Source: Candidatus Gastranaerophilales bacterium (lineage in GTDB: Bacteria; Cyanobacteriota; Vampirovibrionia; Gastranaerophilales; Gastranaerophilaceae). Taken from it: a stretch of 33,290 bases of DNA. The stretch's first letter is position 1. Each line of letters opens with the position of its first letter. The translations under genes and the position numbers were made by a program. The DNA is taken from contig CALUZF010000006.1 in the NCBI GenBank assembly GCA_944325165.1, positions 1 through 33,290 on the forward strand, given 5' to 3'. Below the pieces are notes generated by a model. It saw only the letters and a list, made by a program, of their open reading frames with translations. It was not told the DNA's origin and made no database searches. Below are positions 5,081 through 33,290 of the stretch, one piece after another.

Positions 5081-5095
5081 GGATATTTAGATATT

Positions 5096-5596
5096 ATGAT
5101 GACCTATGTTACAGCTTTTATATTTTATACACTTGCAATGATTGGCATATTGCTTATAGGTTTTGTAGTCTATAAAAAGACTTTTATGACCGAAAAAGGT
5201 GAAAATAAAGGCTATATAAAAGTTATAGATAGTTTGCCAATAGGTAATAAAAAATTGCTTTTAGTTGTAAAAATCAAAAATGAAAAGTTTTTAATTGCTT
5301 CAGGGCTTGAACATACGACATTTTTATCAAAATTAGAGGATGACAATGTTCAAAAGGAAGAGGTAAAAACTCCTGTTTTAAATAATTTTGTTGATGAAAA
5401 TTTGGTAGATAAAATTTATGATGAAACTTTTTCACAAAGAAACCAGCAAAAGCTCTACGATGAAAATAAAAAAGCGAGATTAGACGAGCTTCAAAGACAA
5501 TTTAAGGAATTGTATGAAAAAGAAGAAACAAAACCAAAAATCACAGATTCTATGATGAGCAAAAAAGAAATGCTCAAAAGGCTTTTAAAAGATTAA
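5096..5596 (+). CDS. fliO: Flagellar biosynthesis protein FliO-like
   Basis: FliO assists assembly of the FliP ring of the flagellar export gate. The 166-aa chain has one N-terminal transmembrane helix (about residues 5-26). A FliO-type beta region follows, in which IKVIDSLPIGNKKLLLVVKI matches the usual SLPLGpkr...lvkv pattern, then a hydrophilic coiled-coil-prone tail (100-166) longer than most. Two ATGs stand in tandem at 5096 and 5099. A GGA lies about 12 bases upstream, so the exact start is uncertain by one codon. Position between the switch protein and fliP supports the call, since FliO sequences are poorly conserved. Confidence 0.75.
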   Translation: MMTYVTAFIFYTLAMIGILLIGFVVYKKTFMTEKGENKGYIKVIDSLPIGNKKLLLVVKIKNEKFLIASGLEHTTFLSKLEDDNVQKEEVKTPVLNNFVDENLVDKIYDETFSQRNQQKLYDENKKARLDELQRQFKELYEKEETKPKITDSMMSKKEMLKRLLKD

Positions 5597-5613
5597 ATTA
5601 GGAGTAAATTTTA

Positions 5614-6255
5614 ATGGATAATTTACTGAAAGATATAAATCCTGTAATACAGCTATTGATTACAATGGCGGCGTTTTCTCTTTTGCCGTTTATATTTGTA
5701 TCTATGACTCCTTTTTTAAGGTTTACTGTTGTATTTTCAATGCTTAAAACTGCAATGGGTACAAATTCTGTTCCTCCTGCAATTACTTTAATCGGTTTAT
5801 CTTTAATTTTAACTATTTATACGATGTCGCCTGTTTTTGATAATATGTATCAAGCTTATCAAGTTCCATATCAAAAAAATAAAAATGTAATTGAAGCGCT
5901 AAATGCTAGCTCTAAACCTTTAAAAGAATATATGTTAAAACAAACTCGTCAGTCTGATTTAGCATTTTTCGTTGAAAAAACAAGGCGTCAAGCACCGCAA
6001 ACTCCTGATGAATTGACATTATGGGAGGTTGCTCCTGCATATATAATTTCAGAATTAAAAACAGCATTTGAAATAGGTTTTATTATCTATGTGCCTTTCA
6101 TCGTTTTGGATTTGGTTGTAGCAAATATTTTGCTTGCTTTGGGGATGTTTATGTTATCTCCTCAAATTGTATCAACGCCTTTTAAATTGCTTATTTTCAT
6201 TGCAGTTGATGGCTGGAGTTTAATTGTAAAAGGACTTGTGGAGAGCTTTAACTAA
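5614..6255 (+). CDS. fliP: Flagellar export gate protein FliP
   Basis: FliP forms, with FliQ and FliR, the export gate in the inner membrane through which flagellar proteins pass. The 213-aa chain has four predicted membrane segments. Family landmarks are SMTPFLRFTVVFSMLKTAMGT in the first half, MLKQTRQSDL before the central soluble loop, ELKTAFEIGFIIYVPF, and the C-terminal FKLLIFIAVDGW. It lacks the cleavable signal peptide seen in many FliP proteins and begins about 20 residues before the first conserved helix. AGGAGTAAATTTT places a good ribosome-binding site at the ATG. The stop codon overlaps the fliQ start (TAATG), so the two are translationally coupled. Confidence 0.95.
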   Translation: MDNLLKDINPVIQLLITMAAFSLLPFIFVSMTPFLRFTVVFSMLKTAMGTNSVPPAITLIGLSLILTIYTMSPVFDNMYQAYQVPYQKNKNVIEALNASSKPLKEYMLKQTRQSDLAFFVEKTRRQAPQTPDELTLWEVAPAYIISELKTAFEIGFIIYVPFIVLDLVVANILLALGMFMLSPQIVSTPFKLLIFIAVDGWSLIVKGLVESFN

Positions 6256-6752
6256 TGGAAGTTTTAGTAGAATATTTAGGAAAAGGTTTTATGGTTATGC
6301 TAATGATTAGCATGCCTTGTGTTTTAATGGCTGCTTTGGTGGGTCTTGTTGTCGGTATTTTACAAGCTGTTACACAAGTTCAAGAACAAACCATCGCTGC
6401 TGCTCCTAAAATTGTATTGGTATTTTTAACCATTGTGGTTTTGGGCGGATACTTTATAAAAGTTTTAACAAATTATTTCTTTGAAGGAACGCATGTGGCA
6501 TTTCAAATTGTTCCAAAATCCGAAACTTACGTTTTGCCTGATAATTATTTTAAATATACACGCCCTTTTAGCGCCGAAATGCAGGATAAAATCAATTCAA
6601 ATTCTTCATTTAATAAGGCATATATTAATAATGGCGCTATTCCTTGGGATAAAAAAGCTACAAAGCAAAAAGTGTATATAAATGCAAAGCAAACAGGTAG
6701 TGTCGAGCCTAATTTTATTGAAAGAGCGAAAATTCAGCAGAATTCCAGATAA
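6255..6752 (+). CDS. fliQ: Flagellar export gate protein FliQ with an extra 80-residue tail
   Basis: FliQ is a two-helix export gate subunit, usually close to 89 residues. Here residues 1-85 are a normal FliQ: two transmembrane helices with VGILQAVTQVQEQTIAAAPK between them. They are followed by an unusual tail to residue 165, rich in Asn, Lys and Tyr (for example PDNYFKYTRPFSAEM, then NAKQTGSVEPNF). The tail has no membrane segment and matches nothing I recognise. It is not a frameshifted neighbour, since the frame is continuous and fliR begins 11 bases later. It overlaps the fliP stop by one base. Confidence 0.9.
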   Translation: MEVLVEYLGKGFMVMLMISMPCVLMAALVGLVVGILQAVTQVQEQTIAAAPKIVLVFLTIVVLGGYFIKVLTNYFFEGTHVAFQIVPKSETYVLPDNYFKYTRPFSAEMQDKINSNSSFNKAYINNGAIPWDKKATKQKVYINAKQTGSVEPNFIERAKIQQNSR

Positions 6753-6763
6753 AGGATAGTTAA

Positions 6764-7543
6764 TTGGATGAAATTTTAAAACAATTTGCATATATGTTTC
6801 CTGAAATAAATAATGCTCTTGGTGCAGGCATTATGATATTTCTTAGGCTTGTTGGCATGATGAGATTGGCTCCTGTTTTATCAAAGAGCGAAATTCCTTC
6901 AATGGTGAGATTGTCTTTTGCAATTATTTCAACAATTATTTTAGTTGGAGTTATAAAGCCTGCTGCGCCAAGTCCTGATTGTCCTATATATCTTTGTATG
7001 TTTTTAAATTTTATTTTTGGGGCTTTGATTGGCTTTGTTGCAAATTGTATTTTAGCGGCAGTTTTAACAGGCGGAGATATGATAAACACTCAAATGGGCT
7101 TATCTTCAGCTATGATTATGGATCCGAGTACAAAATCTCAAGTTAGTATTATGGCTAATTTTTTCTCTGTTTTAGCTATGTTGATTTTTATATATTCGGG
7201 TGGAATTTATTGGCTTTTTAATGCGCTGATTCGTAGTTTTGATTTATTTCCTATGTATAGTGTCAATTTTCATTTTGAAAATTTTGTTAATATTGGCTAT
7301 TTAAGCCAAGTTACGGGAAATATTTTATTTATGGGATTGCATATAGCAGGGCCTATTTTGCTTGCTACTATGGCACAAGACATTATTTTGGGTATCATAT
7401 CTAAAACAGCTCCTCAAGTTAACGTTTTTTCATTGAGCTTCTTATTTAAACCGGTTATGGGTGCTTTTATTTTAATAGTGATATTACCTATGTTAATCAA
7501 TGTAATTACTGATTATTTAGTTTCTTATGCTAATATTTTTTAA
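6764..7543 (+). CDS. fliR: Flagellar export gate protein FliR
   Basis: FliR is the large gate subunit that seals the FliPQR complex. The 259-aa membrane protein has about six helices. FliR landmarks are RLVGMMRLAPVLSKSEIPSMVR near the start, GGDMINTQMGLSSAMIMDP in the middle and FLFKPVMGAF near the end. The only reasonable start is TTG 6764: the nearby ATG at 6768 is out of frame and stops at once, and AAAGGA lies 7 bases upstream of the TTG. The flagellar run ends here without flhB or flhA, which often follow in other genomes. The 3' end overlaps the convergent bioY-like gene by 4 bases. Confidence 0.92.
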   Translation: MDEILKQFAYMFPEINNALGAGIMIFLRLVGMMRLAPVLSKSEIPSMVRLSFAIISTIILVGVIKPAAPSPDCPIYLCMFLNFIFGALIGFVANCILAAVLTGGDMINTQMGLSSAMIMDPSTKSQVSIMANFFSVLAMLIFIYSGGIYWLFNALIRSFDLFPMYSVNFHFENFVNIGYLSQVTGNILFMGLHIAGPILLATMAQDIILGIISKTAPQVNVFSLSFLFKPVMGAFILIVILPMLINVITDYLVSYANIF

Positions 7544-19650: not shown

Positions 19651-20265
19651 ATTTCTTTCATAATTTTCTTCTAAAGGCAATTTATAGGGTATAATCTCAA
19701 AATTTGCGTTTTTATATTTTTTCTTGAAATTTTTAATTTCTTCATCGGATAATTTTGCTTTATAGATTAAAAAATCGCCATCTTTAGCTAAATGTTTTTT
19801 AGATAGCTCATATACATCAAGCATTTTTCCGACTGCTCTTGAAACAATTAAATCAACTTCAAGATTTTTAATATCTTCAATTCTATTGTATTCAATTATA
19901 AGGTTATTTAAGGATAATTTTTCTTTTATTTCTTTTATAAAATTTATTTTTTTAATTCTTGAATCGTTAGCTATTATTTTAATATCAGAAAAACAAATCG
20001 CTAAAATGACACTTGGAAAACCGCCGCCTGTGCCAACATCAAGAATTTTTTTATGATTTTTAAATTTATTCCATTTTAAAATAGCTAAAGAATCAAAGAC
20101 ATGTTTTTCAAATAAAACCTCGATATCTCCTCTGCTCATAAGGTTTGTATGGGAATTATATTCTTTAAAATATTTTTCCCATAAGTTTAATTTTTGGATT
20201 GTTTCATTATCCAAAGTGAAATTAAATTCTTTTTTTAAAATGTCAGTTTGTTTAGATGTTATCAT
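19633..20265 (-). CDS. rsmG: 16S rRNA (guanine-527-N7)-methyltransferase RsmG
   Basis: RsmG methylates G527 of 16S rRNA using SAM. The 210-aa chain has NSHTNLMSR near the N-terminus, LDVGTGGGFP (residues 75-84) as the SAM-binding loop, ANDSRIKKINFI for the second strand, and VSRAVGKM, the RsmG-specific RA motif. It starts at ATG 20265 inside the last codons of the upstream ATPase-TPR gene (14-base overlap), with no clear ribosome-binding site. Translation is therefore probably coupled to that gene. Length is typical of the family. Confidence 0.95.
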   Translation of the reverse strand: MITSKQTDILKKEFNFTLDNETIQKLNLWEKYFKEYNSHTNLMSRGDIEVLFEKHVFDSLAILKWNKFKNHKKILDVGTGGGFPSVILAICFSDIKIIANDSRIKKINFIKEIKEKLSLNNLIIEYNRIEDIKNLEVDLIVSRAVGKMLDVYELSKKHLAKDGDFLIYKAKLSDEEIKNFKKKYKNANFEIIPYKLPLEENYERNLIILK

Positions 20266-22576
20266 ATTTTTGAGAAATTAAATTGAATGATATATCATCG
20301 AGTCTTATTTTTATGTCGTTAATTCTGGAATTAACTCTTAAAATATTCTCATTATCTTGAATTTTTTGCAATATAGTTTTTGCATTATAGAAATTAACGA
20401 GCGCTTTTTCATCTTCCCCTCTATCATAGAAAAATTCACCCATTTCAAAATGTACAAGTGCTTCTTTAAAAGTATCATTTAATTTTTTAGCGCTGTTTAG
20501 AGCTTGTTTATAATAGCCGATAGCGCTTGTTTCATCAAATCTTTGATATAATTTAGCTAATTCTTTTTGAGAAAAATACATATTTTCCCAATCATCCACT
20601 TCGCCATCATAAATTAGAGCAAGTTTTAGATAATCAATTGCATCTTTTAATCTTCCTTGTTCGTTATAAATTGAGGCTAAATTTGTTAAAGATACAGAAT
20701 AATATTTGTTTTCTTTTCGCTCTGAGCTTGTTTGATAATTTTTTTGATAGTATTTTATAGCATTTTCATAGTCTTGATGTTCATCATATAAAACAGCAAG
20801 CCTGTAATAACATTTGCAAACAAGATTTTTATCTTTTCCTAAAGATAGCTTTAGCGCATTATTATAGCATTTTATTGCTTCCTCTAAATTGGAATTTGCC
20901 TCTTCAATTTCACCTAATTCTATATTTGCTTTTGCAATATAGTGTATTGAATTTGTCTTATTTTCAATTATTTCTTTAAATTTTTCCTTAGCTTCATCTA
21001 TTTTAAATGTATTTTTTTCTAATTGTGCAATTAAAAATTCTATCTCGCAAACCCTTGTGTCTTTTTGTTCTTTGGCTAATTCAAGGGCTTTTTGGAAATA
21101 TTCCATAGCAAGCGAGCTTCTATTTAAAGCTTCATTATTTTTAGCAATTAAAATTAAAATTTCAATTTGAAATTCATTTTCATAATCTGCTTCTTGGGCT
21201 CTTTTTAATTCATCCAGAGCATCTTGGTATTGATAATTTTTGGCAAAATCTCTTGATGAATTGATTAAATCTATTATAAATCTTTTATTTCTTTCTCTTT
21301 CTTTTTGGTTTTGCTGTAGCTGAGTTTTATCAAATTTTTCAATTTTTGTTTGCTCTTTGATTAAAAAATCTCTTCTTTCTTTAATTTTATTGAGCTTTTC
21401 AGAAAGTTTTGTTTTTTGTATTGTTTTTTCATCTTGCCAAGGCGATGTTGCAATCCCAAGATACGAAAAAGCGTGGTTTTTTTCATTCGGATTAATAGAG
21501 GGTATTTTTATTTTAAAATTTTCTATTTCTTTTCTGATAGCTTCTCTTGAAAGCCTTAAAAGTCTGTCTTTTGGGCTTTTTGTTAATTCGTTTTCATAAA
21601 TTTCAACTAAATTTTTGTAATAAGTTACTTTTTCTTGAATGGAAAAAGTTTTTGTTATGTATTGTCTAAAATAGTCTTTTACATAGTATTCATCTTTAAA
21701 TCTGTTAACTAAGAAATTTTTTGATAAATATTCTATATGAGAAATATTTCCTAGTTTATATCTATTCAAAAAATCGACGCTGACAGGGTGTGATATGGCG
21801 GATAGTGTTTTTAATAAATTTTTATAAATCGCAGGAACTAACGAAGTAAATTTTGTTACTATAAATTCTTCATAAGATAGGTACGAGCCAAGGTTTTTGC
21901 GCTCAAATTCGCTTATTAAATCGGCTATTGTCGTATTTGTGGTTGTACAATATTTTACGCTCATTTTGAGGAATAATTCTAATCCTTGGGTTATTTCATA
22001 AAATTTTTCTTTAATATCAAGGCTCATAGGCTCTGTTAAAATTGAGAGCTTGGATTTGAAATCTTCCTTATTTATTTCATTAATTTCTAGATTTTTTGTT
22101 CTTATTTTTTTAAATCTGAATAAGTTTTTTTCGCGGTTTCTTGTAACGATTATAATTTTTACATTTGTATAACTTGCAAGATGAGATAGAAAATCAACTA
22201 TTTCAACATTTGAATCTACTTTTTCAAAATTTTCAACAATGATAATACAATTTTCATCAATTGTTTTAAAATAATGGCTTACTTTTTCTTTAAAATTATC
22301 GCTTGCAAATTTTTTTAATGAAATTTTTTGTAAAATTGAAAAATTTCTTAATGAATCGTAAAAATTTAAAAGGAAATCATCAATAACAGTATTTTCAAAA
22401 CAGAAATGCTGGAAAACAAGGTTATTTTCTTCTAATTCGGGTATTATTTTTTCTATTGTTTCGCTTTTTGCACTACCTCTTTGACCACTCATGAAGAGTA
22501 GGTCAAAAGTAGATATGGCAAAATTTCTTATTTCGTTTATAATAGAATTATTAAATTGAAAAAAACCTTGTGTCAT
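20252..22576 (-). CDS. P-loop (STAND-like) ATPase with C-terminal TPR repeats
   Basis: The protein is 774 aa with unknown role. Residues 20 to about 330 look like a STAND-type NTPase. The P-loop is GQRGSAKS (31-38), where Ala replaces the usual Gly before the Lys. A Walker B-like CIIIVENFE (110-118) follows, and IIIVTRNRE (141-149) is a sensor-1 strand. A winged-helix-like region (ISHPVSVDFL ... LVNRF) comes next. Residues about 375-430 are a charged helix or coiled coil, and about 435-770 contain roughly seven TPR units (for example AIKYYQKNYQ, AIDYLKLALIY, ALVNFYNAKTI). This is the layout of signal-sensing STAND proteins: regulators, chaperone-like switches or defence proteins. It is probably transcribed from a leaderless promoter and continues into rsmG. 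Confidence 0.75.
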   Translation of the reverse strand: MTQGFFQFNNSIINEIRNFAISTFDLLFMSGQRGSAKSETIEKIIPELEENNLVFQHFCFENTVIDDFLLNFYDSLRNFSILQKISLKKFASDNFKEKVSHYFKTIDENCIIIVENFEKVDSNVEIVDFLSHLASYTNVKIIIVTRNREKNLFRFKKIRTKNLEINEINKEDFKSKLSILTEPMSLDIKEKFYEITQGLELFLKMSVKYCTTTNTTIADLISEFERKNLGSYLSYEEFIVTKFTSLVPAIYKNLLKTLSAISHPVSVDFLNRYKLGNISHIEYLSKNFLVNRFKDEYYVKDYFRQYITKTFSIQEKVTYYKNLVEIYENELTKSPKDRLLRLSREAIRKEIENFKIKIPSINPNEKNHAFSYLGIATSPWQDEKTIQKTKLSEKLNKIKERRDFLIKEQTKIEKFDKTQLQQNQKERERNKRFIIDLINSSRDFAKNYQYQDALDELKRAQEADYENEFQIEILILIAKNNEALNRSSLAMEYFQKALELAKEQKDTRVCEIEFLIAQLEKNTFKIDEAKEKFKEIIENKTNSIHYIAKANIELGEIEEANSNLEEAIKCYNNALKLSLGKDKNLVCKCYYRLAVLYDEHQDYENAIKYYQKNYQTSSERKENKYYSVSLTNLASIYNEQGRLKDAIDYLKLALIYDGEVDDWENMYFSQKELAKLYQRFDETSAIGYYKQALNSAKKLNDTFKEALVHFEMGEFFYDRGEDEKALVNFYNAKTILQKIQDNENILRVNSRINDIKIRLDDISFNLISQKYDNI

Positions 22577-22780: not shown

Positions 22781-23815
22781 ATGCAACCGGTAACTAGTGT
22801 AAATGTAGAAAATCTTCCAAATGTAGGATATCTTGTTTCAGACAAGGAAAAGAAAGAAAAATTTTTTAAAAACGAATCGCATATTTATAAACAAGGACCT
22901 TTGGAAGGGGTAAAAGTAGGTGCTCATAAGCTTTATAATGATGTTTTAACATATTATCCCAAAGGCTTTGCGGGTTCAAAAAACAGTGATTTTTATGAAT
23001 ATTTATCTTTAGGTATGGTGCCAAATATAATTGGCAGTTTGATGTTGATGGCTTCATACGGACTTGTAAATTATAAGTTTAGTGCTGATGATGCAAGATT
23101 TGCAAATATTAGTTTTAAACAAGCCGCATCAGGCGTTGTGCTATATGCGCTTGGCAAATGGGCATTTCAAAAATTTGCAAGAACAGTAATTAATAAATTT
23201 ACAGATGTAAATATCGATTTATTCTATAAAAAACAAGTAATTGAATTGCCTGAATTGGGTCAAGAAAAAGGACTTGTTAGAACACAGTATCCTAAAGTAT
23301 ATGATTCTGTTCAATTCTATCGTAGCGATTTATTAACAAAAGACGGTGAATTAAATCATAATAATGCTTATTATCACGATGATAAAATTGTAAGAAAAGT
23401 AGGATATAAAGATAAAAAGAACGCATCTAACCAAATGGCAAGCGAAAAGATTAGAGGCGTAAAAGCAAGAACAACAGCTCTTGAAAATATCGGAAAATAT
23501 GTGTTAGCAGCGACAGGTGTTGCTCTTGGTTCTCAAAATGCTTTTGGAAAAATCGATTTAAAATCCCCAAGAACTATAGTAAATGCATTTAAGGAAGGTG
23601 CAGTTGAGCTTTGGAAAGGCAGAGATATAGATGTTAAAACTACAGGCATCGGCAAAATAATGAAATCTTTGTATAAACACTCTGGCAAAGGTTTAGTTAT
23701 AGCATCTGCAGTTATGGCATTTTTGACTTGCTTAATTCCTATCTTAGCTTTCAAACATAAACCTGATTTTATGAAGGATAAGGTTGATACAAAGAAAGAA
23801 TATGAGGTGTGCTAA
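22781..23815 (+). CDS. Lineage-specific membrane protein A of the glucan operon (344 aa)
   Basis: I do not recognise a named family. ATG 22781 follows a GGGG ribosome-binding site; the frame is open back to a GTG at 22745, but that extension is Cys/Tyr-rich and unsupported. The N-terminal 75 residues are hydrophilic. A membrane hairpin (about 77-97 and 113-128) follows, then a soluble region with YPKVYDSVQFY. TTALENIGKYVLAATGVALG (231-250) contains a further hydrophobic stretch, and a C-terminal helix (304-324) precedes a charged tail. No signal peptide is seen. The layout matches the downstream protein B, with which it shares several short motifs. The stop overlaps the next start (TAATG), so the two should be made together. 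Confidence 0.75.
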   Translation: MQPVTSVNVENLPNVGYLVSDKEKKEKFFKNESHIYKQGPLEGVKVGAHKLYNDVLTYYPKGFAGSKNSDFYEYLSLGMVPNIIGSLMLMASYGLVNYKFSADDARFANISFKQAASGVVLYALGKWAFQKFARTVINKFTDVNIDLFYKKQVIELPELGQEKGLVRTQYPKVYDSVQFYRSDLLTKDGELNHNNAYYHDDKIVRKVGYKDKKNASNQMASEKIRGVKARTTALENIGKYVLAATGVALGSQNAFGKIDLKSPRTIVNAFKEGAVELWKGRDIDVKTTGIGKIMKSLYKHSGKGLVIASAVMAFLTCLIPILAFKHKPDFMKDKVDTKKEYEVC

Positions 23816-26193
23816 TGTCTTATATAAGTCCTATTTTACAAAATAAATTAAACATTAGTTCAAAAAAACAACCGACTTCAAATTTACAAAATAGCCATGA
23901 TAAGGCTTATGAAGAATTGCAAAAGAAAGCAAATGAAGTAAAGCCTAATGAAGCAAAAGCTAAATTGGTTAAAGAAGGCATGCTTGGTAATCCTATTACA
24001 GCGATTAAAGATGATTTTAATGATATAAAAAATTTCTTTAAAACTGTTAATAAAGGAGAAATGAGCGATAATAATATCGGCAGAATGAACGATATAGGTT
24101 TGAAACTAGGTGCATTTTTAATAGCTTCATTTTTAGCTCTTAAATCAAAAACAAAAACAAATGCAATTATGAGCTATATTGGTGGCGCTACTTTTATTGG
24201 TATGATGTCTTTATGGCCAAAATTGTTTATTAATATCCCCGCAAGATTAGTTCATGGCTTTAGGATTGATGAAAAATATATCAGCGCACAAGGCGATAAA
24301 AAAGATTTATATTTAGATAACCAATATATCCCGACAGGAATACATTCTGAAGAACAAAAAAGACGTGAAATGAAAAGAATGGGAATTAATCCTGATGAAT
24401 TAAATGCTGAAGAAAAATGGTTTAGAAAAAGACAAAAAACAGCACTTCAAAATAGAACCTTAGGAATGGCAACTGCAGGTTTTGCAACTCCTTTATTTAC
24501 TTCAATTATAGGCAATTATGTTGAACCTATTGTTGAAAAAGGTGTTGTAAGACATGATGTTAATAAAGTTAAAAAAGTTTTAGATAACGGCGGTTTTGCA
24601 AGCTTTATGCAATCAGTAAAACCCGAAGTAAGAAATGAAAAAGAATTGAAGGCAATTCTTGAAGGTGCTAAAGACGGTGCTCTTGAAGGTGATTTCTTCA
24701 GAAACGTTGCAAAAACTATATTGCCAACAGATTTTGTCTTGAAATATAAAGATATAGATAACGCTAATGCGGTTAAAGACTTTAAAGAATTTGGCGTTAT
24801 CGAAGAATTGAGAAAAGTTTATCATCAATTAGCTACTTTAAAAACAGAAGATTTAAGACTTGATGAAATATTAGACACTTGCGAAGTTAAAAGTACCAAT
24901 GACGTTTTGCAAGGCTTATTTAATGTGAATGCTACTTCAATAGACGTTTTAGACGGAGCTGCAGAAACTGTATTAGGCGGAAATACTAACGCTGATAAGT
25001 TGGCAAGACTTAAAAATGTTTTAGGTGAAAGCTGTTCAATTGAAAAATTGCAAAAAGAACTTGAAGCTTCAGGATTATCTTTAGACTTTACTGAAAAAGT
25101 TATGAAGAAAGCCGATGTAGTTTCAGATAAAAAGAAATTCTTTGATTTCATAGAAGCCTACAACAGAGGCCCTGTTGCACAGTTGAGAGCAAGATTAAAA
25201 GCTTATGCTGATTTTGTAAATCCTGTTGTGGGTTCTAAAGCTGAATCTGCTTCAACATTGGAATATTCTAAAGCAATGAAAAAAGTATTTGCAGGATTAG
25301 GATTTAAAACTCCTGATTATGTTAAATTTAAAGACTTACAAGAAGAAAAAGCCATCGCTTATTTATCTGAGTTGGTAAAAAATGCTGCTGCAGGTAAAAC
25401 AAAAGAAGAATATAAAGCATTCTTAGAATCCGTAACTTTAGGACAAATGGATGAAAGTGTTTTAGATATTATTAAAAAATTGCAATCAGATGATGTTCTA
25501 AATCAAATTAAAATTGATTCTGAAGCAATAGATGGAATTAATCTAAAAGGCTTAAATGAGGCTCTTCTTTGCGGTAGTGAAAAATCTGCAAGAAAGATTT
25601 TATTTAATGTTATTGAAAATAAAAAATTAGATTTAGATGCTACAAGAATAAGAATGTTGATATGTGCAAACTTTGAAAGAAGATTGGCTGAAGGCGAATT
25701 TAGTGATTTTGATAGTTATTATATAAATTCAATGAAAAAAGCAATATATGATGCTGATTATAACGTATTTAAAAACTCTGCCCATGCTGATAATCCAGAT
25801 ATGATAAAAGAATTTGTTAGAAGGGTGTTTGATATTGAAAAGTTTAATGAAACAGAAAAAGATGTTGCTGATAAATTAAAATTATTCTTAGGAATGGCTG
25901 ATGATTCAACAGAAAAAGGAAGAGGACTTAAAAAATATCTTGAAAACATAAATGCAATATTCCAAAAAGGTCAAACTAAGTATATGGCAAACCAAAATTT
26001 GGATTATACAACTTGCAGTTCTATAATGGATAATTTGAGAAATTTTGCAAGAAGATTAAGTAATAATAAGATTTGGTTACATACTTTCCTTCCAATGACA
26101 ATTATTTTAATTGCTGTGACTTTATTAGTACAGCCGTTGTTTGGTAAAATCGATAAAGAGTTTCCGGAAGAAAAAAACGGAGGTGCTAGATAA
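23815..26193 (+). CDS. Lineage-specific membrane protein B with a large soluble insert (792 aa)
   Basis: I do not recognise a named family. ATG 23815 overlaps the previous stop and has GAGG 7 bases upstream. A hydrophilic N-terminus is followed by a membrane hairpin (about 97-110 and 117-135), then LFINIPARLVHGFRIDEKY and YLDNQYIPTG. KTALQNRTLGMATAGFATPL (208-227) is a further hydrophobic segment. About 500 residues of soluble, mostly helical, Lys/Glu-rich sequence follow, and a C-terminal transmembrane helix (around 755-775) ends in a charged tail. The hairpin, the TALxN segment and the final helix parallel protein A, so the two are probably paralogues with the insert unique to B. Coupling to the following GH13 gene (TAATG) implies a shared role. 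Confidence 0.78.
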   Translation: MSYISPILQNKLNISSKKQPTSNLQNSHDKAYEELQKKANEVKPNEAKAKLVKEGMLGNPITAIKDDFNDIKNFFKTVNKGEMSDNNIGRMNDIGLKLGAFLIASFLALKSKTKTNAIMSYIGGATFIGMMSLWPKLFINIPARLVHGFRIDEKYISAQGDKKDLYLDNQYIPTGIHSEEQKRREMKRMGINPDELNAEEKWFRKRQKTALQNRTLGMATAGFATPLFTSIIGNYVEPIVEKGVVRHDVNKVKKVLDNGGFASFMQSVKPEVRNEKELKAILEGAKDGALEGDFFRNVAKTILPTDFVLKYKDIDNANAVKDFKEFGVIEELRKVYHQLATLKTEDLRLDEILDTCEVKSTNDVLQGLFNVNATSIDVLDGAAETVLGGNTNADKLARLKNVLGESCSIEKLQKELEASGLSLDFTEKVMKKADVVSDKKKFFDFIEAYNRGPVAQLRARLKAYADFVNPVVGSKAESASTLEYSKAMKKVFAGLGFKTPDYVKFKDLQEEKAIAYLSELVKNAAAGKTKEEYKAFLESVTLGQMDESVLDIIKKLQSDDVLNQIKIDSEAIDGINLKGLNEALLCGSEKSARKILFNVIENKKLDLDATRIRMLICANFERRLAEGEFSDFDSYYINSMKKAIYDADYNVFKNSAHADNPDMIKEFVRRVFDIEKFNETEKDVADKLKLFLGMADDSTEKGRGLKKYLENINAIFQKGQTKYMANQNLDYTTCSSIMDNLRNFARRLSNNKIWLHTFLPMTIILIAVTLLVQPLFGKIDKEFPEEKNGGAR

Positions 26194-28175
26194 TGATTAG
26201 TGTTCAACCTATAAATTATGTTCAGCCAAGAGCTTATGTAATGCAGCCTGCTAAGCAAGTTCCTGTTGTGCCGATAGCTCAACCGTATTATGTGCAACAA
26301 ACTTATCTAATGCCTACTGTATCAGCATATACAATTCCTTCTGCTGCACCTGTGGTTCAAAATAATAATAAAACGACTAATCCTGTAAATAATCAACAAA
26401 TAGTTACAGTAAGCCCTCTATTACTTAAAACTCTTGCTAATAAGAAGAAATTGACACCTAATATTGTTTCAGTATCTGAAATAGCTCCAACTGAAGCTTC
26501 AAGGAGAGTTCCAGGATACAAAAATGATTTAAGGAATATGTTAACTCATAACAGAGCTAATATTTTAGCTGTTATTCCAAGAATTATGAATGCCCAAGAT
26601 AAAGATGGCAACGAATTAATCCAAGGCGATGAACAAGCGGGAAATCTTGTTAATGCAGTTGAGCGCTTGGATGAAATTAAAGATTTAGGATTTAACACTT
26701 TGCATGTGCTTCCTATTCATCCGCCCGGAAAAACACACGCTATGGGTACAGCCGGTTCATTATATGCTCCAGCTGATTTCTTATTAGTTGATCCAGAGCT
26801 TGTGGATGAAAATCCATCTTCTGAAGCATATAAGAGAATTGCTGAGATATATGAGCAAAAAACAGGCAAAAAGCTTGAAAAAATGGATAAAAATGACCCT
26901 GAAGTAGCTTTTGCTCAATGTAAATATTTTGTTGATGAATGTCATAAACGTGGCATAAGAGTAATGCTTGACTTGCCTTCTTGCGCCAGCGTTGATTATG
27001 CAAAAAAACATCCTGAAATGATGGCAATAGGCGCTGACGGAAAAGAAAAAGTTCCTCAAGGCTGGCAAGATATCAGAATGTTGAAGCCTTTTGAAAATGA
27101 ACAAACAAGAGAATTAAATAAAGACGTATTGGATTTACACAAAAAATATGTTGATATGTGTGTAGATTTAGGTATGGATGGTATCAGAGCCGATGTAGGC
27201 AGAGCGAAACCTGTTGAATTTTGGAATGTTATTATCAACTATTCAAGAGTTAAAGACCCTCAATTTGCATGGTTAGCTGAAACATACACCCATGAAGATG
27301 CGTCACCTCAATTAAATATGCCTTATGACAGACCTCAAGAGCTCTTGGAAGTTGGTTTTGATTCATATTACGGTCAATATCATATTTATAGCGATTGGTT
27401 AGAAGCTAACGATTTATATAGCTATGTTAAAGAAAATATAGATATGAACAATAAAATCGGTAAACCAAAATCTCTAATCGGTTCATTTGCAACACATGAT
27501 GACAGATCACCAATGTTATATGGCGGTGCTCCTTGGGTAATGTTTACAACAATACTTCAATCAATGTTGCCTCAAGTAAATCCTTATATGACAGATGGCG
27601 TACAAACAGGTGATTATTACATTTTCCCTTATGACCATGCTTTGGTAAAAGAAACTCAAACAGATAATCACGAATGTGTTGTTCATACAGGCAGAATGGA
27701 TATTTTCAATAAATCAAGAAAACCAGGCGGTAAATTCCCTGAAATTTCAAATGTTGTAAAAGCTGCGTTTGCCTTGAGAGATAATGAATACAATAAAGTT
27801 ATGAATACCAATACTTTGCAAATGAATAATGCGCAAGACGTTATAACAAAAGGTTCATTTATAATATTGCCTACAAATAATTCGCAAATTATTGCTTTTG
27901 CAAGACATAAAGACGGCAAGACATTGTTATTTATAGGTAATAGAAATGTTAACTTTAAAGTTGGCGGAAAAGTTACTATACCAGGTCTAAAACCGCAACA
28001 AAAATTCACAAATTTAATGCCTGCTTATGGCGAAGAATGTAAATTCCAAAACAATCAAGACGGTACTTTAACGGTTGAATTGGGCGCAAGCAGGGCGTGT
28101 GTTTTTGAAATAGATGCTCCTGATATAGAAAAATTATCAAATCAACAAAATGTATTGCAACAAAAATACGTTTAA
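26193..28175 (+). CDS. GH13 (alpha-amylase family) enzyme resembling GlgE
   Basis: A 660-aa alpha-glucan-active enzyme of the GH13 clan. Residues 1-90 are Pro/Gln/Asn-rich and probably disordered, without a signal peptide. The barrel starts near LAVIPRIMN (125). Region I is VMLDLPSCAS (Asp260) and lacks the usual Asn-His. Region II is GIRADVGRAKP, with nucleophile Asp334. Region III is LAETY, with acid Glu363. Region IV is FATHDDRSP (His435, Asp436). A C-terminal beta domain (about 560-645) follows. KKHPEMM, WQDIRMLKPF and AKPVEFW resemble the maltosyltransferase GlgE (GH13_3), but the match is by eye, so transferase versus hydrolase is open. GGAGG precedes the ATG, which overlaps the upstream stop. 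Confidence 0.82.
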   Translation: MISVQPINYVQPRAYVMQPAKQVPVVPIAQPYYVQQTYLMPTVSAYTIPSAAPVVQNNNKTTNPVNNQQIVTVSPLLLKTLANKKKLTPNIVSVSEIAPTEASRRVPGYKNDLRNMLTHNRANILAVIPRIMNAQDKDGNELIQGDEQAGNLVNAVERLDEIKDLGFNTLHVLPIHPPGKTHAMGTAGSLYAPADFLLVDPELVDENPSSEAYKRIAEIYEQKTGKKLEKMDKNDPEVAFAQCKYFVDECHKRGIRVMLDLPSCASVDYAKKHPEMMAIGADGKEKVPQGWQDIRMLKPFENEQTRELNKDVLDLHKKYVDMCVDLGMDGIRADVGRAKPVEFWNVIINYSRVKDPQFAWLAETYTHEDASPQLNMPYDRPQELLEVGFDSYYGQYHIYSDWLEANDLYSYVKENIDMNNKIGKPKSLIGSFATHDDRSPMLYGGAPWVMFTTILQSMLPQVNPYMTDGVQTGDYYIFPYDHALVKETQTDNHECVVHTGRMDIFNKSRKPGGKFPEISNVVKAAFALRDNEYNKVMNTNTLQMNNAQDVITKGSFIILPTNNSQIIAFARHKDGKTLLFIGNRNVNFKVGGKVTIPGLKPQQKFTNLMPAYGEECKFQNNQDGTLTVELGASRACVFEIDAPDIEKLSNQQNVLQQKYV

Positions 28176-28228
28176 GATGGTTTGAAAAAAATAAAAAAAG
28201 GGAAAAATATTAATATAAAGGAAGAGCA

Positions 28229-31200
28229 ATGGATTTTTCAATTAATAATATTAATTTAAATAAGAAAAATATAAGTTTTAAAGGCTTTGAGGCAGCTTAT
28301 AATGATAAGACAGTGCCTATGTTTAGTTTTTATGCTCCTGCTCACAAAAAGGACGAAAAAGTTTATCTTGAATTTTTTCCTTTAGAAAAAGATGAAACTA
28401 CATCTCAATTTAAAGTTACCAAAGAATTTTATACTTTGGGTTTTGATGGAAAAGAACTTATTGAGTTTCCTCAAAATATGATTAGAAAAGCTTGTGCAGG
28501 CTTTGGATATAGATATAAAATAATAAATAAACAAAATAAAGTAAGATATGAGCTTGACCCGTTTAAAACAATGAAATTCGGTAAGAATAATACAGAAATA
28601 AATGTTGTAAATCCGGGACAACAAGTATATATTTCTCCAAAAGCAGGTACTGCTCGCCATAGTTTTCTTGATTCAGATGTTGTTTATGATGCAAATTTGG
28701 GAAGAAGAGCTAAAGTCAAAGAAGATTTTGTAAGAAATCATTTTAATAAATTAGGCGGTAGCATTAAAGGTCTAAATTGGTTATTGACTGAAACTGATGA
28801 ATTAGAGCCTTATACATATTTTATTACCACACCAGATATTGGTGTAGATAAAATTTCAAGTCATGGATATTGGCCAAATAATCAATACCAATGCAATAAT
28901 TTAGAAGATTTTAAAAACTTTAATTTTGAATTGTTCAAAAGAGGTAAGGGTTATATTGCAGACGGTGCTTTTACTTCTCAAGGTATTCAATCTCCTTTAG
29001 TGCAACACGTATTAAAATGGGGCAGTGATTCGCCATTTTATAATATGTTAAAAATAGACGGCAAAATTGCACTTGGTGTTTTGCCTGATATAGTTGGAGG
29101 ACAAGACGTAAACCCTTATGATCATATAGGCTTTAGGGTAGTCAACCCGAAAGGTAAAAATTATGACAAAAATAAACCGACATATATTCAATTATATGAC
29201 GATAGATTATTAACACCTGAAAGCCAAGTTGACGGAAAACTTCATTTTGAATATGATACAACTCCAAAAGATAGTTATGAGATAACTACACATCAAGATT
29301 CGGTTGTTCCTTATGCTTTTGAGATTGATCCAAACGATAGCAAATTAAGAATTTTTAAAGATAAAAATGCAGTATTAGTAAGCGAAATTGAAAAAAGAAT
29401 GGGCGGTTTGAGAGCCTTCGTAAGATTTGATAACTTTTCACTTGCGCCAAAAAGCAAAGTTGCAGGAGTTACTTGCTGGGATGGAAATACTGATATTATT
29501 AAAATGAATTTATCTAATCCTACAAAAAGTCCGGAAAACGAAGAAGGATTTGTTAATGCAAGAAATTATTTGTACGGCGTTGCTTCATATTGGAGTGGCT
29601 TAATTCAATCTCATTTAATTTTGGAAACTGCAAAGTGTTCTAAAAAGCCTAAAATTGCTGAAGCAAACAAAATTTCATCTGATTTATATAAACAAATTCA
29701 AGCTTCAATCGCAAATAATACATTTAATTCATTAGTTTTATCTGAAAACTTGGATACAGCTGAGCTTGTTAAGAATTTTCCTCTACAAACATTGGAAACA
29801 AGCGTAGAATTAAGTGCTATATTTGCTCAACCCCAATTTTCTAAAGAATTATTTAGAGGTGATACTTTAGGAAAAATTACAAAGATATTTGATGATACAG
29901 TAAAAAGCTCACTACCAGACGCATACAAAGGTAATGAAGAATACATTAAATATGTTAAAAAGACATACGGCACAGAAATTTTAAGACAAATTTTTGCAGG
30001 AGCACTTAATTCTGAAACAATTAAAAAAGACGGTACTATTGATTTAGGTGTTCTTAATAAAGTTACTTTAAAATCTATAGAAAAACATAAATCAACTTGC
30101 CCAAAAGAAGAAAGAGCTCAAGTAATTTCAAAAATTGAAGATGGTATAAATAAGAGTGAAACTGATTGGCTTGCAGAAAGAATTAAAAAGGAATTATCTT
30201 CAATTAGTCTTGAAGATTTCAAATTGGCTGAAGCTATTGTTTTACATGGTAAGGGCGGTTTGAATTGGCGTTTTGATGCTGCTAAAGATATCGGTGATTT
30301 AGATTCTGTTAGAGCTGAAAGAAAAACGCTAAATCAAATTTGGCAATCTGACGAAATGCAACCAGGTGTTGAAAATTTCTTTAAAAACTTTATAAGAAGA
30401 ATTAGAAAATATAATCCTGCTCCATATATTGTCAATGAGGTTACTTCACTTGGTGAATTCTGTGATTTAGGTAGCGAAGAATCTCTAGAAAATTTTGACC
30501 CCAGGTTAACTCAAGCTTGGAGACAAGCAGGTAAACCTGACAAATATGAAGAAAAACCTGTTTATATGAAACAAGCTCAATTCCTAGAGGAAACAAATTC
30601 TACAACAATTTCTGAATATTCAAAGGGATTTAATGCTTTTTCTGTATTTGCAGGAGTTGACCCTGAACATCCTGTTTCTGATTTAGGTTCTTATAAGGGT
30701 ACAACTTCAAAAGCAGGTAATTTAGGTATTTTAAAAAATCAAATGGAAGAGTTGATGAAATATAGTCAATCTGACGCTGCTATATTTTCTCATATGTTCA
30801 ATTCTAACCACGATAAACCTTCAGTATTACATACTTTGCCTTTAAATATGTCAATATTTTTGGCTGAAAAACTTGAAAATTTAGATGAAAAGACAAAAAG
30901 CAATATACGCTATTTGACAGGTAGAGATGATTTGAAAAACATGTGCCCTCAAGCGGTAGGTGTTGGTTTAGCTATGTATAAGGTTATTGAAAATCTTCCA
31001 AAATCATTTAATGAAAGTGATAAAGCTAAATTATATAAATCTCTTCAAAATCTTGTAAATGGTAAAAAAGCTGACGGTAGTGGAAAAAATAGCTTCAAAA
31101 GAGCAAGAGCATTTGGCGTTAGACCTTTTGTAAGAACAATTAAAGATATGATTGAAAACGCAGGAATTGCAAAAAATGAGGATGATTTAATAAATAAAGT

Positions 31201-32086
31201 TCGCGATTTTCATTATGCAATGACGTGTGATTCTAGGTCATATTATGAAAGATTATGGCAAGTAATGAATGCTTGTGTTGGTACTCCTACATTGTTTGGC
31301 GGTAGTGAATTTGCTCAAGAAGGCTATGAAACACCATCTAAAAACGTGTATCTAGGTATCAGAAATGAAGTGTTACATGATTTAAAAGATGATGCAAGAT
31401 ACCAAGATTATTATAATAAAATGCGTAAAATATCCGGTATGTATAGATTTCCAGGACTTAGCGTTTTAAGAGATGGTACTCCTATGTCATTGAAATTAGT
31501 TTCTGCAAAAGCTGATATTAATAAAGAATTTGCAAAAATGGCTGAAGCTTATTATAAAGAAGCTGAAAAAAGAGGTGTATCAAAAGGTGCGATTGATTAT
31601 TTTGTAGGACAAGTTTCAAATAGTGCTAAAGGTTTTGGTCTTAGTCCCCGAGAATATGGCATAAGCAGTGATAATAATAATCATGAAAATTATAAAAAAG
31701 TAGAAGATATTATTGAAAATATTATTTCTATTAATAATAATAAAAAAGCGCTGTTAAAACGCACAAATGGTTTTGAATTGTGGCCTATATATCGTAAAAA
31801 TTCAAAAGGAGAAGAAGCGCTTAGCGTTGTAACAAACCTTGGTTTGCCTAATGGATCCGCTTCATGGCAGAAAAATCCTCTTGAATCCATCAGACTTGAA
31901 GAAAGTATATTAATCGAGAATGAAAATGGTGTTTGTCCTTTTGATGAAGGTACAAAACTTCAAAAAGTTTCTTATGATGGCACAAAAGAGGCTGGTTATA
32001 TTGTAAAAGACCATAAAATAGTTAAACAAGATGGTTCAAGAATAAGATTAACAGATACAGTAAGCGTATTTGTTCCGACTAAATAA
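28229..32086 (+). CDS. Giant GH13-family protein (1285 aa) with an oversized insertion
   Basis: The GH13 landmarks are spread over a very long chain. Region I is GKGYIADGAFTSQG (Asp245), followed by QHVLKWGSDSPFY. Region II is GLNWRFDAAKD (Asp683 in the nucleophile position), region III is YIVNEVTSL (Glu737) and region IV is FNSNHDKP (Asp862). All three catalytic acids are therefore present. About 440 residues lie between regions I and II, where about 100 is usual. They include a large beta part and a helical part around residues 455-660. Residues 1-150 resemble a CBM48-like N-domain headed by NISFKGF. There is no signal peptide or membrane helix. GGAAGAG precedes the ATG, 53 bases after the upstream GH13 gene. 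A terminator follows directly. Confidence 0.8.
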   Translation: MDFSINNINLNKKNISFKGFEAAYNDKTVPMFSFYAPAHKKDEKVYLEFFPLEKDETTSQFKVTKEFYTLGFDGKELIEFPQNMIRKACAGFGYRYKIINKQNKVRYELDPFKTMKFGKNNTEINVVNPGQQVYISPKAGTARHSFLDSDVVYDANLGRRAKVKEDFVRNHFNKLGGSIKGLNWLLTETDELEPYTYFITTPDIGVDKISSHGYWPNNQYQCNNLEDFKNFNFELFKRGKGYIADGAFTSQGIQSPLVQHVLKWGSDSPFYNMLKIDGKIALGVLPDIVGGQDVNPYDHIGFRVVNPKGKNYDKNKPTYIQLYDDRLLTPESQVDGKLHFEYDTTPKDSYEITTHQDSVVPYAFEIDPNDSKLRIFKDKNAVLVSEIEKRMGGLRAFVRFDNFSLAPKSKVAGVTCWDGNTDIIKMNLSNPTKSPENEEGFVNARNYLYGVASYWSGLIQSHLILETAKCSKKPKIAEANKISSDLYKQIQASIANNTFNSLVLSENLDTAELVKNFPLQTLETSVELSAIFAQPQFSKELFRGDTLGKITKIFDDTVKSSLPDAYKGNEEYIKYVKKTYGTEILRQIFAGALNSETIKKDGTIDLGVLNKVTLKSIEKHKSTCPKEERAQVISKIEDGINKSETDWLAERIKKELSSISLEDFKLAEAIVLHGKGGLNWRFDAAKDIGDLDSVRAERKTLNQIWQSDEMQPGVENFFKNFIRRIRKYNPAPYIVNEVTSLGEFCDLGSEESLENFDPRLTQAWRQAGKPDKYEEKPVYMKQAQFLEETNSTTISEYSKGFNAFSVFAGVDPEHPVSDLGSYKGTTSKAGNLGILKNQMEELMKYSQSDAAIFSHMFNSNHDKPSVLHTLPLNMSIFLAEKLENLDEKTKSNIRYLTGRDDLKNMCPQAVGVGLAMYKVIENLPKSFNESDKAKLYKSLQNLVNGKKADGSGKNSFKRARAFGVRPFVRTIKDMIENAGIAKNEDDLINKVRDFHYAMTCDSRSYYERLWQVMNACVGTPTLFGGSEFAQEGYETPSKNVYLGIRNEVLHDLKDDARYQDYYNKMRKISGMYRFPGLSVLRDGTPMSLKLVSAKADINKEFAKMAEAYYKEAEKRGVSKGAIDYFVGQVSNSAKGFGLSPREYGISSDNNNHENYKKVEDIIENIISINNNKKALLKRTNGFELWPIYRKNSKGEEALSVVTNLGLPNGSASWQKNPLESIRLEESILIENENGVCPFDEGTKLQKVSYDGTKEAGYIVKDHKIVKQDGSRIRLTDTVSVFVPTK

Positions 32087-32087
32087 A

Positions 32088-32112
32088 AAAAGCCCCGATT
32101 TAAGGGGCTTTT
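32088..32112. terminator. Bidirectional intrinsic terminator closing the glucan operon
   Basis: AAAAGCCCC (32088-32096), a 7-base loop and GGGGCTTTT (32104-32112) form a perfect 9-base-pair stem with A/T flanks on both sides. It starts 2 bases after the giant GH13 stop and its right arm reaches the stop codon of the convergent gene, so it can serve both strands. Confidence 0.9.
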
Positions 32113-33290
32113 AAATTATTTTTACTTTAAAATCTTCTTTTAGAGATTCAATTACATGCGGATTTATTAATGAATGCGGGCAATTAGCTATATTTAGTTC
32201 TATATCTTGATTTAAGAGGGTTAATAAAACTCCTAAATTTGTAAGGTTGCATTGAGCTAAAAATACAGTTATTTTAATACCTTTTTCTTTTAGCTTATTA
32301 ATTGATTCTAAAAGTATATCTCCTTCTAAAGGACAGCTGATTTTAACTATTTTTTTACCGTTATAATCATCTACTTGTTGATTACCGTCCAATAATCCTG
32401 AGATTACTATTATTTCTTCAACATCGGTGTGTTCTATAAATTTTTTGATTTTTTCTCTATCGTAGTCAATTTCTATGGATGTTGTTTCTTTTGATTTTTT
32501 ACATCCGTTTAGTCTTAGAGCTGTCTCGATTAGCGGTTTATAATCATTATTTTTAATATCGGCAAATTTTGAAAATGATATTAATTTATTTGAAAAAATT
32601 TCTCCACGATAAAGATTATCTATTTTTTGTATGAAATTTTGGGTGATTAATATTGCACCGTCAAAAACAGAAAAGTCATATTGGGCATTATCTGCGCCAA
32701 AGTGTCCTTTTAGGTATTTATTTTTCTTAAAGTAAGGATAAAAATGTGCTAAAAATAAAGGTCCATGGGTATAAACATTTATTTTTTCTTTAATATCCAT
32801 TTCATCGATTGTTTTTAAAAGTTTTTCCAATTCATCCAAGTCAGCACCAGAAACTAAAATACAATGACCGTCCAAAAGGGATGTTTTTGTGTTGGCGCTT
32901 TCTTTTTTGCCATATTTTTTCTGATAAATTAAAGACAATTTTACGGCAATTTTTAGTGAAAAATCGGAAAATTCGTAAATTCTTCTTATTATTTTTTCAT
33001 TTCTTATAGAATATCCGTTTGTAAGAGCGAAAAATCTTAAAACTCCAAAATCGTACTCATCGCAATAGTTTTCAAGTTTTTTGATTTTTGTTATTTCAAT
33101 TGCACAAAGTCTTGAAAAAAGAGTTATAAGCTCAAAAAGTCTTAGTTTTACTTTATCTGTATTTTTTTGTTTGTTTATAAGATTACTTTGCGAATAATTG
33201 ATTAATTCTGATATTGTCATTGATTTATCGAATTTAAAATTAGTTTTGATTATTTCACAAGGAAGTTCGTTGTTTGAACAATAATCAATG
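32111..33290 (-). CDS. Degenerate hybrid cluster protein (HCP)-like protein, partial at right edge
   Basis: The pattern matches hybrid cluster protein (prismane, hydroxylamine reductase). GHCILVSGADLDELEKLL is followed by INVYTHGPLFLAHFYPYFKK, then a stretch matching the FPGPILMTTNC region, and a C-terminal NPHVIESLKEDF. The metal ligands appear lost: the usual TNC reads TQNF, GGCDG reads SGLLDG, and the Glu/Lys of WYEQKAV is absent (FLAQCNLTN). The ATG at 33220 has no ribosome-binding site, and the frame stays open upstream to the window edge. That extension contains two Cys (DYCSNNELPCE) near where HCP N-termini bind a cluster, so the gene probably starts outside. The domain length fits the short class III HCP form. 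Function unknown; possibly a pseudoenzyme. Confidence 0.65.
   Translation of the reverse strand, partial: IDYCSNNELPCEIIKTNFKFDKSMTISELINYSQSNLINKQKNTDKVKLRLFELITLFSRLCAIEITKIKKLENYCDEYDFGVLRFFALTNGYSIRNEKIIRRIYEFSDFSLKIAVKLSLIYQKKYGKKESANTKTSLLDGHCILVSGADLDELEKLLKTIDEMDIKEKINVYTHGPLFLAHFYPYFKKNKYLKGHFGADNAQYDFSVFDGAILITQNFIQKIDNLYRGEIFSNKLISFSKFADIKNNDYKPLIETALRLNGCKKSKETTSIEIDYDREKIKKFIEHTDVEEIIVISGLLDGNQQVDDYNGKKIVKISCPLEGDILLESINKLKEKGIKITVFLAQCNLTNLGVLLTLLNQDIELNIANCPHSLINPHVIESLKEDFKVKII

What the first reader, a model, noticed from the sequence alone, without database searches (positions are those of the whole stretch)
22781..32086. Four-gene operon pairing two lineage-specific membrane proteins with two divergent GH13 enzymes
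The first three genes are joined by TAATG overlaps, the fourth follows after 53 bases, and one terminator closes the set. Both GH13 proteins lack signal peptides, and both partners are membrane proteins with no named family. Ordinary starch or glycogen loci have GlgA/B/P/X or transporters, none of which is here. I infer a membrane-associated alpha-glucan synthesis or remodelling system, perhaps making a glycan on an internal or inner-face membrane.
Basis: partly seen in the sequence, partly recalled or inferred. Interest (0 to 1): 0.75.

Follow-up and report, generated by a model that had tools for sequence, protein, structure and literature searches.

The report
Membrane-tethered, N-terminally tagged alpha-glucan enzyme operon
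A gut-dwelling relative of cyanobacteria carries a conserved gene set that pairs two unknown membrane proteins with two starch/glycogen-type enzymes, and these enzymes belong to a second copy of sugar-polymer metabolism whose proteins share a short N-terminal tag that probably sends them to a separate place in or outside the cell.

Summary
The four-gene set is real. A-B-C is one unit: adjacent on one strand in every one of about 78 relatives with enough sequence, usually with overlapping stop and start codons. D is a looser fourth member: directly downstream in 46 of 80 loci, elsewhere in many relatives. In another family of the class D again sits beside A-B-C, in divergent orientation, and in three genomes B and C are one fused protein. 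A and B look like remote paralogues with no detectable known relative. C and D keep the full GH13 catalytic triad; no Sec signal was seen.

Similar tags recur on other proteins, including second copies of glycogen synthase (GlgA2) and amylomaltase (MalQ2), while the ordinary copies have none. I conclude that A-B-C-D is a membrane-tethered part of a second, 'addressed' alpha-glucan pathway. Where the address points is open: a membrane-bound site inside the cell, or export through the second type III-like gate found in 78 of 78 genomes of the family. Synthesis or breakdown is not settled. No function was measured.

The parts
22781..23815 (+). A: 344-aa helical membrane protein, family without known relatives; probable remote paralogue of B
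   Evidence: A of two genomes of another family also hits the B profile (3.7e-8 and 7.9e-7); direct A-B profile comparison E 1.7e-4 but probability only 50%
23015..23203 (+). A: predicted helical hairpin, residues 79-141 (moderately hydrophobic)
   Evidence: AlphaFold2 model, mean pLDDT 82; hydropathy
23693..23749 (+). A: C-terminal hydrophobic segment, residues 305-323
23815..26193 (+). B: 792-aa helical membrane protein with the same layout as A plus a long insert; fused to C in three genomes of another family
23815..23850 (+). B: N-terminal short motif ISPIL (MSYISPILQNKL), also seen in C of relatives
24067..24255 (+). B: predicted helical hairpin, residues 85-147
26086..26142 (+). B: C-terminal hydrophobic segment, residues 758-776
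26193..28175 (+). C: GH13 enzyme with Pro/Gln-rich N-terminal linker; catalytic Asp334, Glu363, Asp436
26409..26435 (+). C: short linear motif VSPLLLKTL in the linker, like the B N-terminus
28229..32086 (+). D: divergent GH13 enzyme nearest to neopullulanase/maltogenic amylase, with about 390 extra residues between conserved regions I and II; catalytic Asp683, Glu737, Asp862
28229..28285 (+). D: N-terminal tag MDFSINNINLNKKNISFKG (F-x-G tag)
   Evidence: Phe17 invariant, Gly19 in 22 of 24; FxG in 46 of 46 downstream-linked D
32088..32112 (.). stem-loop that may close the operon (bidirectional)

Best explanation
A-B-C(-D) is a membrane-tethered module for cutting or rearranging alpha-1,4-glucan. 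A and B are probable remote paralogues that form the membrane platform. C is held next to B, and D is brought to the same site by its N-terminal F-x-G tag. The module is one part of a second alpha-glucan pathway (GlgA2, MalQ2, C, D) that is kept physically apart from the ordinary cytosolic enzymes by N-terminal tags. Shown by computation: gene order, fusions, co-distribution, GH13 triads, tag conservation, tagged versus untagged isozyme pairs. Inferred: that A and B form a complex, that the tag is an address, the substrate, and the direction of the reaction. My guess for the place is a membrane-associated glucan site served from the cytosol (about 50%) rather than export (about 35%).
For: A-B-C contiguous in all loci long enough, A/B and B/C gaps median -1, C/D median 53 nt. 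B-C fusions as single ORFs of 986, 1030 and 1082 aa, with B domains first and the GH13 domain after the last hydrophobic helix. D beside A-B-C in a second family in the opposite orientation. A in 41 of 97 class genomes, full-length D in 40 of those 41 and in none of the other 56; B in 64 of 64 family genomes and, one spurious match aside, in none of the 82 others sampled across the phylum. Phe invariant and Gly 22/24 in the D tag at 25% mean identity; Phe kept in two further families, Gly in one of them. Tag-like N-termini in one related genome: 20 versus 3.5 expected by shuffling; in sequence not used to design the pattern 7 versus 1.9, more than the maximum of 6 in 300 shuffles. GlgA2 and MalQ2 carry N-terminal extensions, most with F-G or F-x-G, while GlgA1 and MalQ1 start at the folded domain. 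Cysteine 0.22-0.77% in GlgA2 against 1.25-2.47% in GlgA1, and 0.33-0.90% against 0.95-1.41% for MalQ. GlgA2 keeps KxGGL and E-x7-E in most copies, so it probably still uses a nucleotide sugar, which favours a cytosolic side. D lies beside a sucrose/maltose-type symporter, and in one genome MalQ, GlgP and GlgA2, in the second family.
Against: D is unlinked in many genera, and A and B persist without D in G045. G036 has the full operon but no GlgA2 was found, so the pathway is not always complete. Several GlgA2 and MalQ2 N-termini lack the Gly, and MalQ2 of G000 and G032 did not show the RxDH nucleophile motif. The tag pattern was first drawn from the data. Hydrophobic segments of A and B are only moderate. 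No complex was modelled.
Confidence: 0.52

Rival explanations
1. The tag is a type III-like export signal. C, D, GlgA2, MalQ2 and perhaps A and B leave the cell through the second, non-flagellar FliNOPQR/FlhA gate and act on alpha-glucan outside or in another cell, as Chlamydia glycogen enzymes do in the inclusion.
For: A short-FliP export gate is in 78 of 78 family genomes, also those with no second, longer FliP, and in all 41 genomes with A; it is encoded in this window. Tags are N-terminal, acid-poor and N/S/T-rich, with no Sec signal. Tagged isozymes are cysteine-poor. A and B segments are of moderate hydrophobicity, as reported for type III-exported membrane proteins (PMC6110835). Chlamydia GlgA, GlgB, GlgX, GlgP and MalQ carry type III signals in their first 20 residues (PMC4829429). 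A tagged MalQ-like gene lies 1.6 kb from the gate genes in G021.
Against: GlgA2 keeps nucleotide-sugar motifs. The spacing rule of early flagellar signals (at least 26 residues) is not met by D, whose F is at residues 15-27. Families f8, f9, f10 and f12 have FliP but no A.
Confidence: 0.3
2. An ordinary cytosolic maltodextrin/glycogen breakdown set. The N-termini are disordered leftovers and A and B are unrelated membrane proteins that happen to be co-transcribed.
For: GH13_20-type enzymes are often cytosolic (own knowledge). D lies next to a sugar symporter in another family. Starch and glycogen use is predicted for these bacteria (PMC3787301).
Against: F-x-G is conserved across families and recurs on unrelated proteins. 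B-C fusions. Invariable A-B-C coupling.
Confidence: 0.15
3. C and D are secreted amylases that act alone, and their place in the operon is incidental.
For: Three stand-alone C relatives start with apparent Sec signal peptides (L039, L055, L068).
Against: The Sec forms make a separate paralogue branch (SH-aLRT 100), though long branches make the join uncertain; all operon C, including those of the other family, fall outside it. Operon C and D have no Sec signal.
Confidence: 0.03

Closest known systems
Chlamydia trachomatis glycogen enzymes with type III secretion signals (GlgA, GlgB, GlgX, GlgP, MalQ; PMC4829429)
   Same: Alpha-glucan enzymes including GlgA, MalQ and a GH13 enzyme carry N-terminal signals instead of Sec peptides, in a genome with a type III gate.
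   Different: Here the tagged enzymes are second copies beside untagged ones, two dedicated membrane proteins are coupled to one of them, and export is unproven.
GH13_20 neopullulanase / maltogenic amylase / cyclomaltodextrinase
   Same: Best profile match of D (1sma, E 1.6e-27); same catalytic triad.
   Different: D is 1285 aa with about 390 extra residues between conserved regions I and II and an F-x-G tag.
GH13 alpha-amylases 4gkl/3dhu and GlgE maltosyltransferase
   Same: Best profile matches of C, triad intact.
   Different: C has a Pro/Gln-rich N-terminal linker and is coupled or fused to membrane protein B.
Sus-type starch utilisation systems and glgBXCAP operons
   Same: Clustered alpha-glucan genes with membrane partners or several enzymes.
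   Different: No TonB receptor, SusD, GlgB, GlgX, GlgC or GlgP in the locus; A and B have no relatives there.

Membership tests
GH13 alpha-amylase family | catalytic Asp-Glu-Asp triad in conserved regions II, III and IV | tested here: met
   C D334/E363/D436 invariant in 15; D D683/E737/D862 invariant in 24
GH13 alpha-amylase family | profile similarity to solved GH13 structures | tested here: met
   D: 1sma 1.6e-27; C: 4gkl 6.3e-26
GH13_20 neopullulanase/maltogenic amylase | compact protein of about 590 aa without a long insert | tested here: not met
   D is 1285 aa; matches are broken by a long insert
Sec-secreted amylase | N-terminal hydrophobic signal peptide | tested here: not met
   no hydrophobic segment in C or D; present only in stand-alone C paralogues
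glgBXCAP-type glycogen operon | GlgA/B/C/P/X genes in the locus | tested here: not met
   none among the ORFs of the locus; GlgA1 lies on another contig
Sus-type system | TonB-dependent receptor and SusD-like lipoprotein | tested here: not met
   A and B match no Pfam or NCBIfam family
early flagellar type III substrate (FlgD type) | hydrophobic N-terminus at least 26 residues before the gate recognition motif | tested here: not met
   D tag Phe at residues 15-27, median 18; rule from PMC8983047
type III-secreted alpha-glucan enzymes (Chlamydia type) | N-terminal residues export a reporter in a type III-dependent way | not testable with these tools
   needs a bench test
type III-secreted alpha-glucan enzymes (Chlamydia type) | type III export gate present in the same genome | tested here: met
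   FliP in 78 of 78 family genomes; FlhA in 13 of 13 genomes of the order

The most novel reading that the evidence does not exclude
Three families of the Melainabacteria class use an undescribed N-terminal F-x-G sorting signal that sends a duplicate alpha-glucan pathway, with its own membrane scaffold (A, B), to a site separate from the cytosolic pathway, possibly by export through a second type III-like gate kept after loss of flagella.
Probability: 0.4. Interest if true: 0.88.

Novelty: new variant of a known kind. Interest (0 to 1): 0.68.

Why it matters
If the tag is an address, these bacteria keep two alpha-glucan pathways apart by short N-terminal signals, much as isozymes are kept apart in organelles or as Chlamydia exports its glycogen enzymes. 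It would suggest a function for a second type III-like gate that is kept in every genome of the family, and a way to list its cargo. A and B would be the first members of a membrane protein family dedicated to glucan enzymes. The question can be tested directly with reporter fusions of a 20-residue tag.

Tried and rejected
Phage and plasmid records: no D match in phages; C gives only distant GH13 hits in plasmids, the best at 24-27% identity. Secreted stand-alone amylases: rejected for the operon forms. Fold search of A and B: no match in the PDB with E below 0.06. The bare motif F-x-G is only 1.5-2 times enriched near N-termini; the composite pattern with acid-poor polar flanks is needed, and the simple start-motif test gives 26 against 13.8 expected (p = 4e-4). 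In flanks of loci from other genera the composite pattern gave 7 against 2.4 and 5 against 1.9, within the range of single shuffles, so those two samples are only suggestive. Pooled cysteine content of all tagged proteins is not clearly lower than that of other proteins; the difference appears in the isozyme pairs and in A, B and D.

Full report
WHAT IS THERE. Four ORFs on the + strand: A 22781-23815, B 23815-26193, C 26193-28175, D 28229-32086. A/B and B/C overlap; C and D are 53 nt apart; a stem-loop follows D. A and B match nothing in Pfam or NCBIfam and B nothing in PDB sequences; confident models (mean pLDDT 82 and 78) match no solved fold. The models share a layout: a helical hairpin, a small beta hairpin, a long helix and a C-terminal hydrophobic helix. 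A proteins of two genomes of another family hit the B profile (3.7e-8 and 7.9e-7), although the direct profile comparison of A and B is weak (E 1.7e-4, probability 50%). I take A and B as probable remote paralogues.

ENZYMES. Profiles place D near neopullulanase/maltogenic amylase and C near amylases 4gkl/3dhu and GlgE. Both keep the full triad. D has about 390 extra residues between conserved regions I and II.

CONSERVATION. 116 relatives of B were found in public genomes; of the 80 shown, nearly all are titled Gastranaerophilales, Melainabacteria, Cyanobacteria or simply bacterium. In these 80 loci A, B and C are adjacent wherever the contig reaches; D follows in 46. B is in 64 of 64 family genomes and in none of the 82 others sampled across the phylum apart from one spurious match. 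In the family, 69 of 78 genomes have D, often alone. Beyond the family, A and full-length D occur together in families f7 and f13 and nowhere else among 97 class genomes. Three families are few independent events, so this co-occurrence is descriptive. In f7, D sits beside A-B-C in divergent orientation in seven loci, and B and C are one ORF in three. The fusion is the strongest sign that C works next to B.

THE TAG. D proteins mostly begin M-[K/D]-[V/I/L]-[N/S], then polar residues, then F-x-G. Phe is invariant and Gly is in 22 of 24 in an alignment of 25% mean identity; all 46 linked D have it. In f7 the tag reads RFSGYR and the like, in f13 KFSAYR/RFSAYR or QFSGYR. A proteins of the A-B-C-only clade start with similar SFG/NFKS motifs, and B and C share an ISPxL motif. 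In one related genome the composite pattern finds 20 N-termini against 3.5 by shuffling and 1.4 from protein interiors; in sequence of the same genome not used for its design, 7 against 1.9 (maximum of 300 shuffles: 6). Tagged proteins include a HAD phosphatase, a calcineurin-like phosphoesterase and many unknowns.

A SECOND ALPHA-GLUCAN PATHWAY. The genome has an ordinary GlgA and an ordinary amylomaltase without extensions, and second copies with tag-like N-termini. GlgA2 of this genome (L315:1825-4353) reads MRISPINFGYKNNQIHFQK, followed by a hydrophobic pair and a starch-synthase domain. MalQ2 (L323:1924-3921) reads MNINGISTKNFSLNFGNAL. By my count 6 of 9 GlgA2 and 4 of 7 MalQ2 have F-G or F-x-G; the rest have F with another residue. 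Most GlgA2 keep KxGGL and E-x7-E. Cysteine is clearly lower in GlgA2 than GlgA1, and lower in MalQ2 than MalQ1. In f7, GlgA2 lies next to C in G133 and next to the sugar symporter and D in G100, where MalQ and GlgP adjoin. G036 has the operon without a detectable GlgA2.

WHERE DOES THE ADDRESS POINT? Export: every genome of the family has a short-FliP gate, encoded also in this window; earlier work read the incomplete gene sets of non-flagellated members as unable to make a flagellum (PMC4040986). Chlamydia exports its glycogen enzymes by type III signals in the first 20 residues (PMC4829429). Against: GlgA2 looks able to use nucleotide sugars, and the D tag does not meet the spacing rule of early flagellar signals (PMC8983047). 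I could not test FliP-less genomes for tags.

VERDICT. The place, the partner of the tag and the reaction are inference; nothing here was measured.

Noticed in passing
window 3842-7543: SctQ/FliN-FliO-FliP-FliQ-FliR set, a second type III export gate with short FliP that is present in all 78 family genomes, also those without a second, longer FliP.
   Followed up: partly
G000:C74 and relatives (L334:1043-2494): A third FlhA-like protein of about 486 aa that covers only the C-terminal half of FlhA, found in nearly all genomes searched in this genus and in four other families of the order.
   Followed up: no
L194:5458-7548 (G021): A tagged MalQ-like gene 1.6 kb from the FliN-O-P-Q-R genes.
   Followed up: no
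window 20252-22576: Protein with ATPase-like N-terminal region and TPR repeats, divergent from A and kept beside it together with rsmG in much of the A-B-C-D clade.
   Followed up: no
window 32111-33220: Prismane/hydroxylamine reductase relative that aligns only to an internal part of the family profile; its upstream end may run off the window.
   Followed up: no
L176: A-B-C on a contig labelled Brachyspira (ONYB01000132.1), probably a mislabelled metagenome bin.
   Followed up: no
L079:6900-7985 and L088:13559-14590: Proteins starting MG[M/L]AASQARFLGLTARKSN, with no reliable family match; possible surface or hook-like parts of the second type III apparatus.
   Followed up: partly
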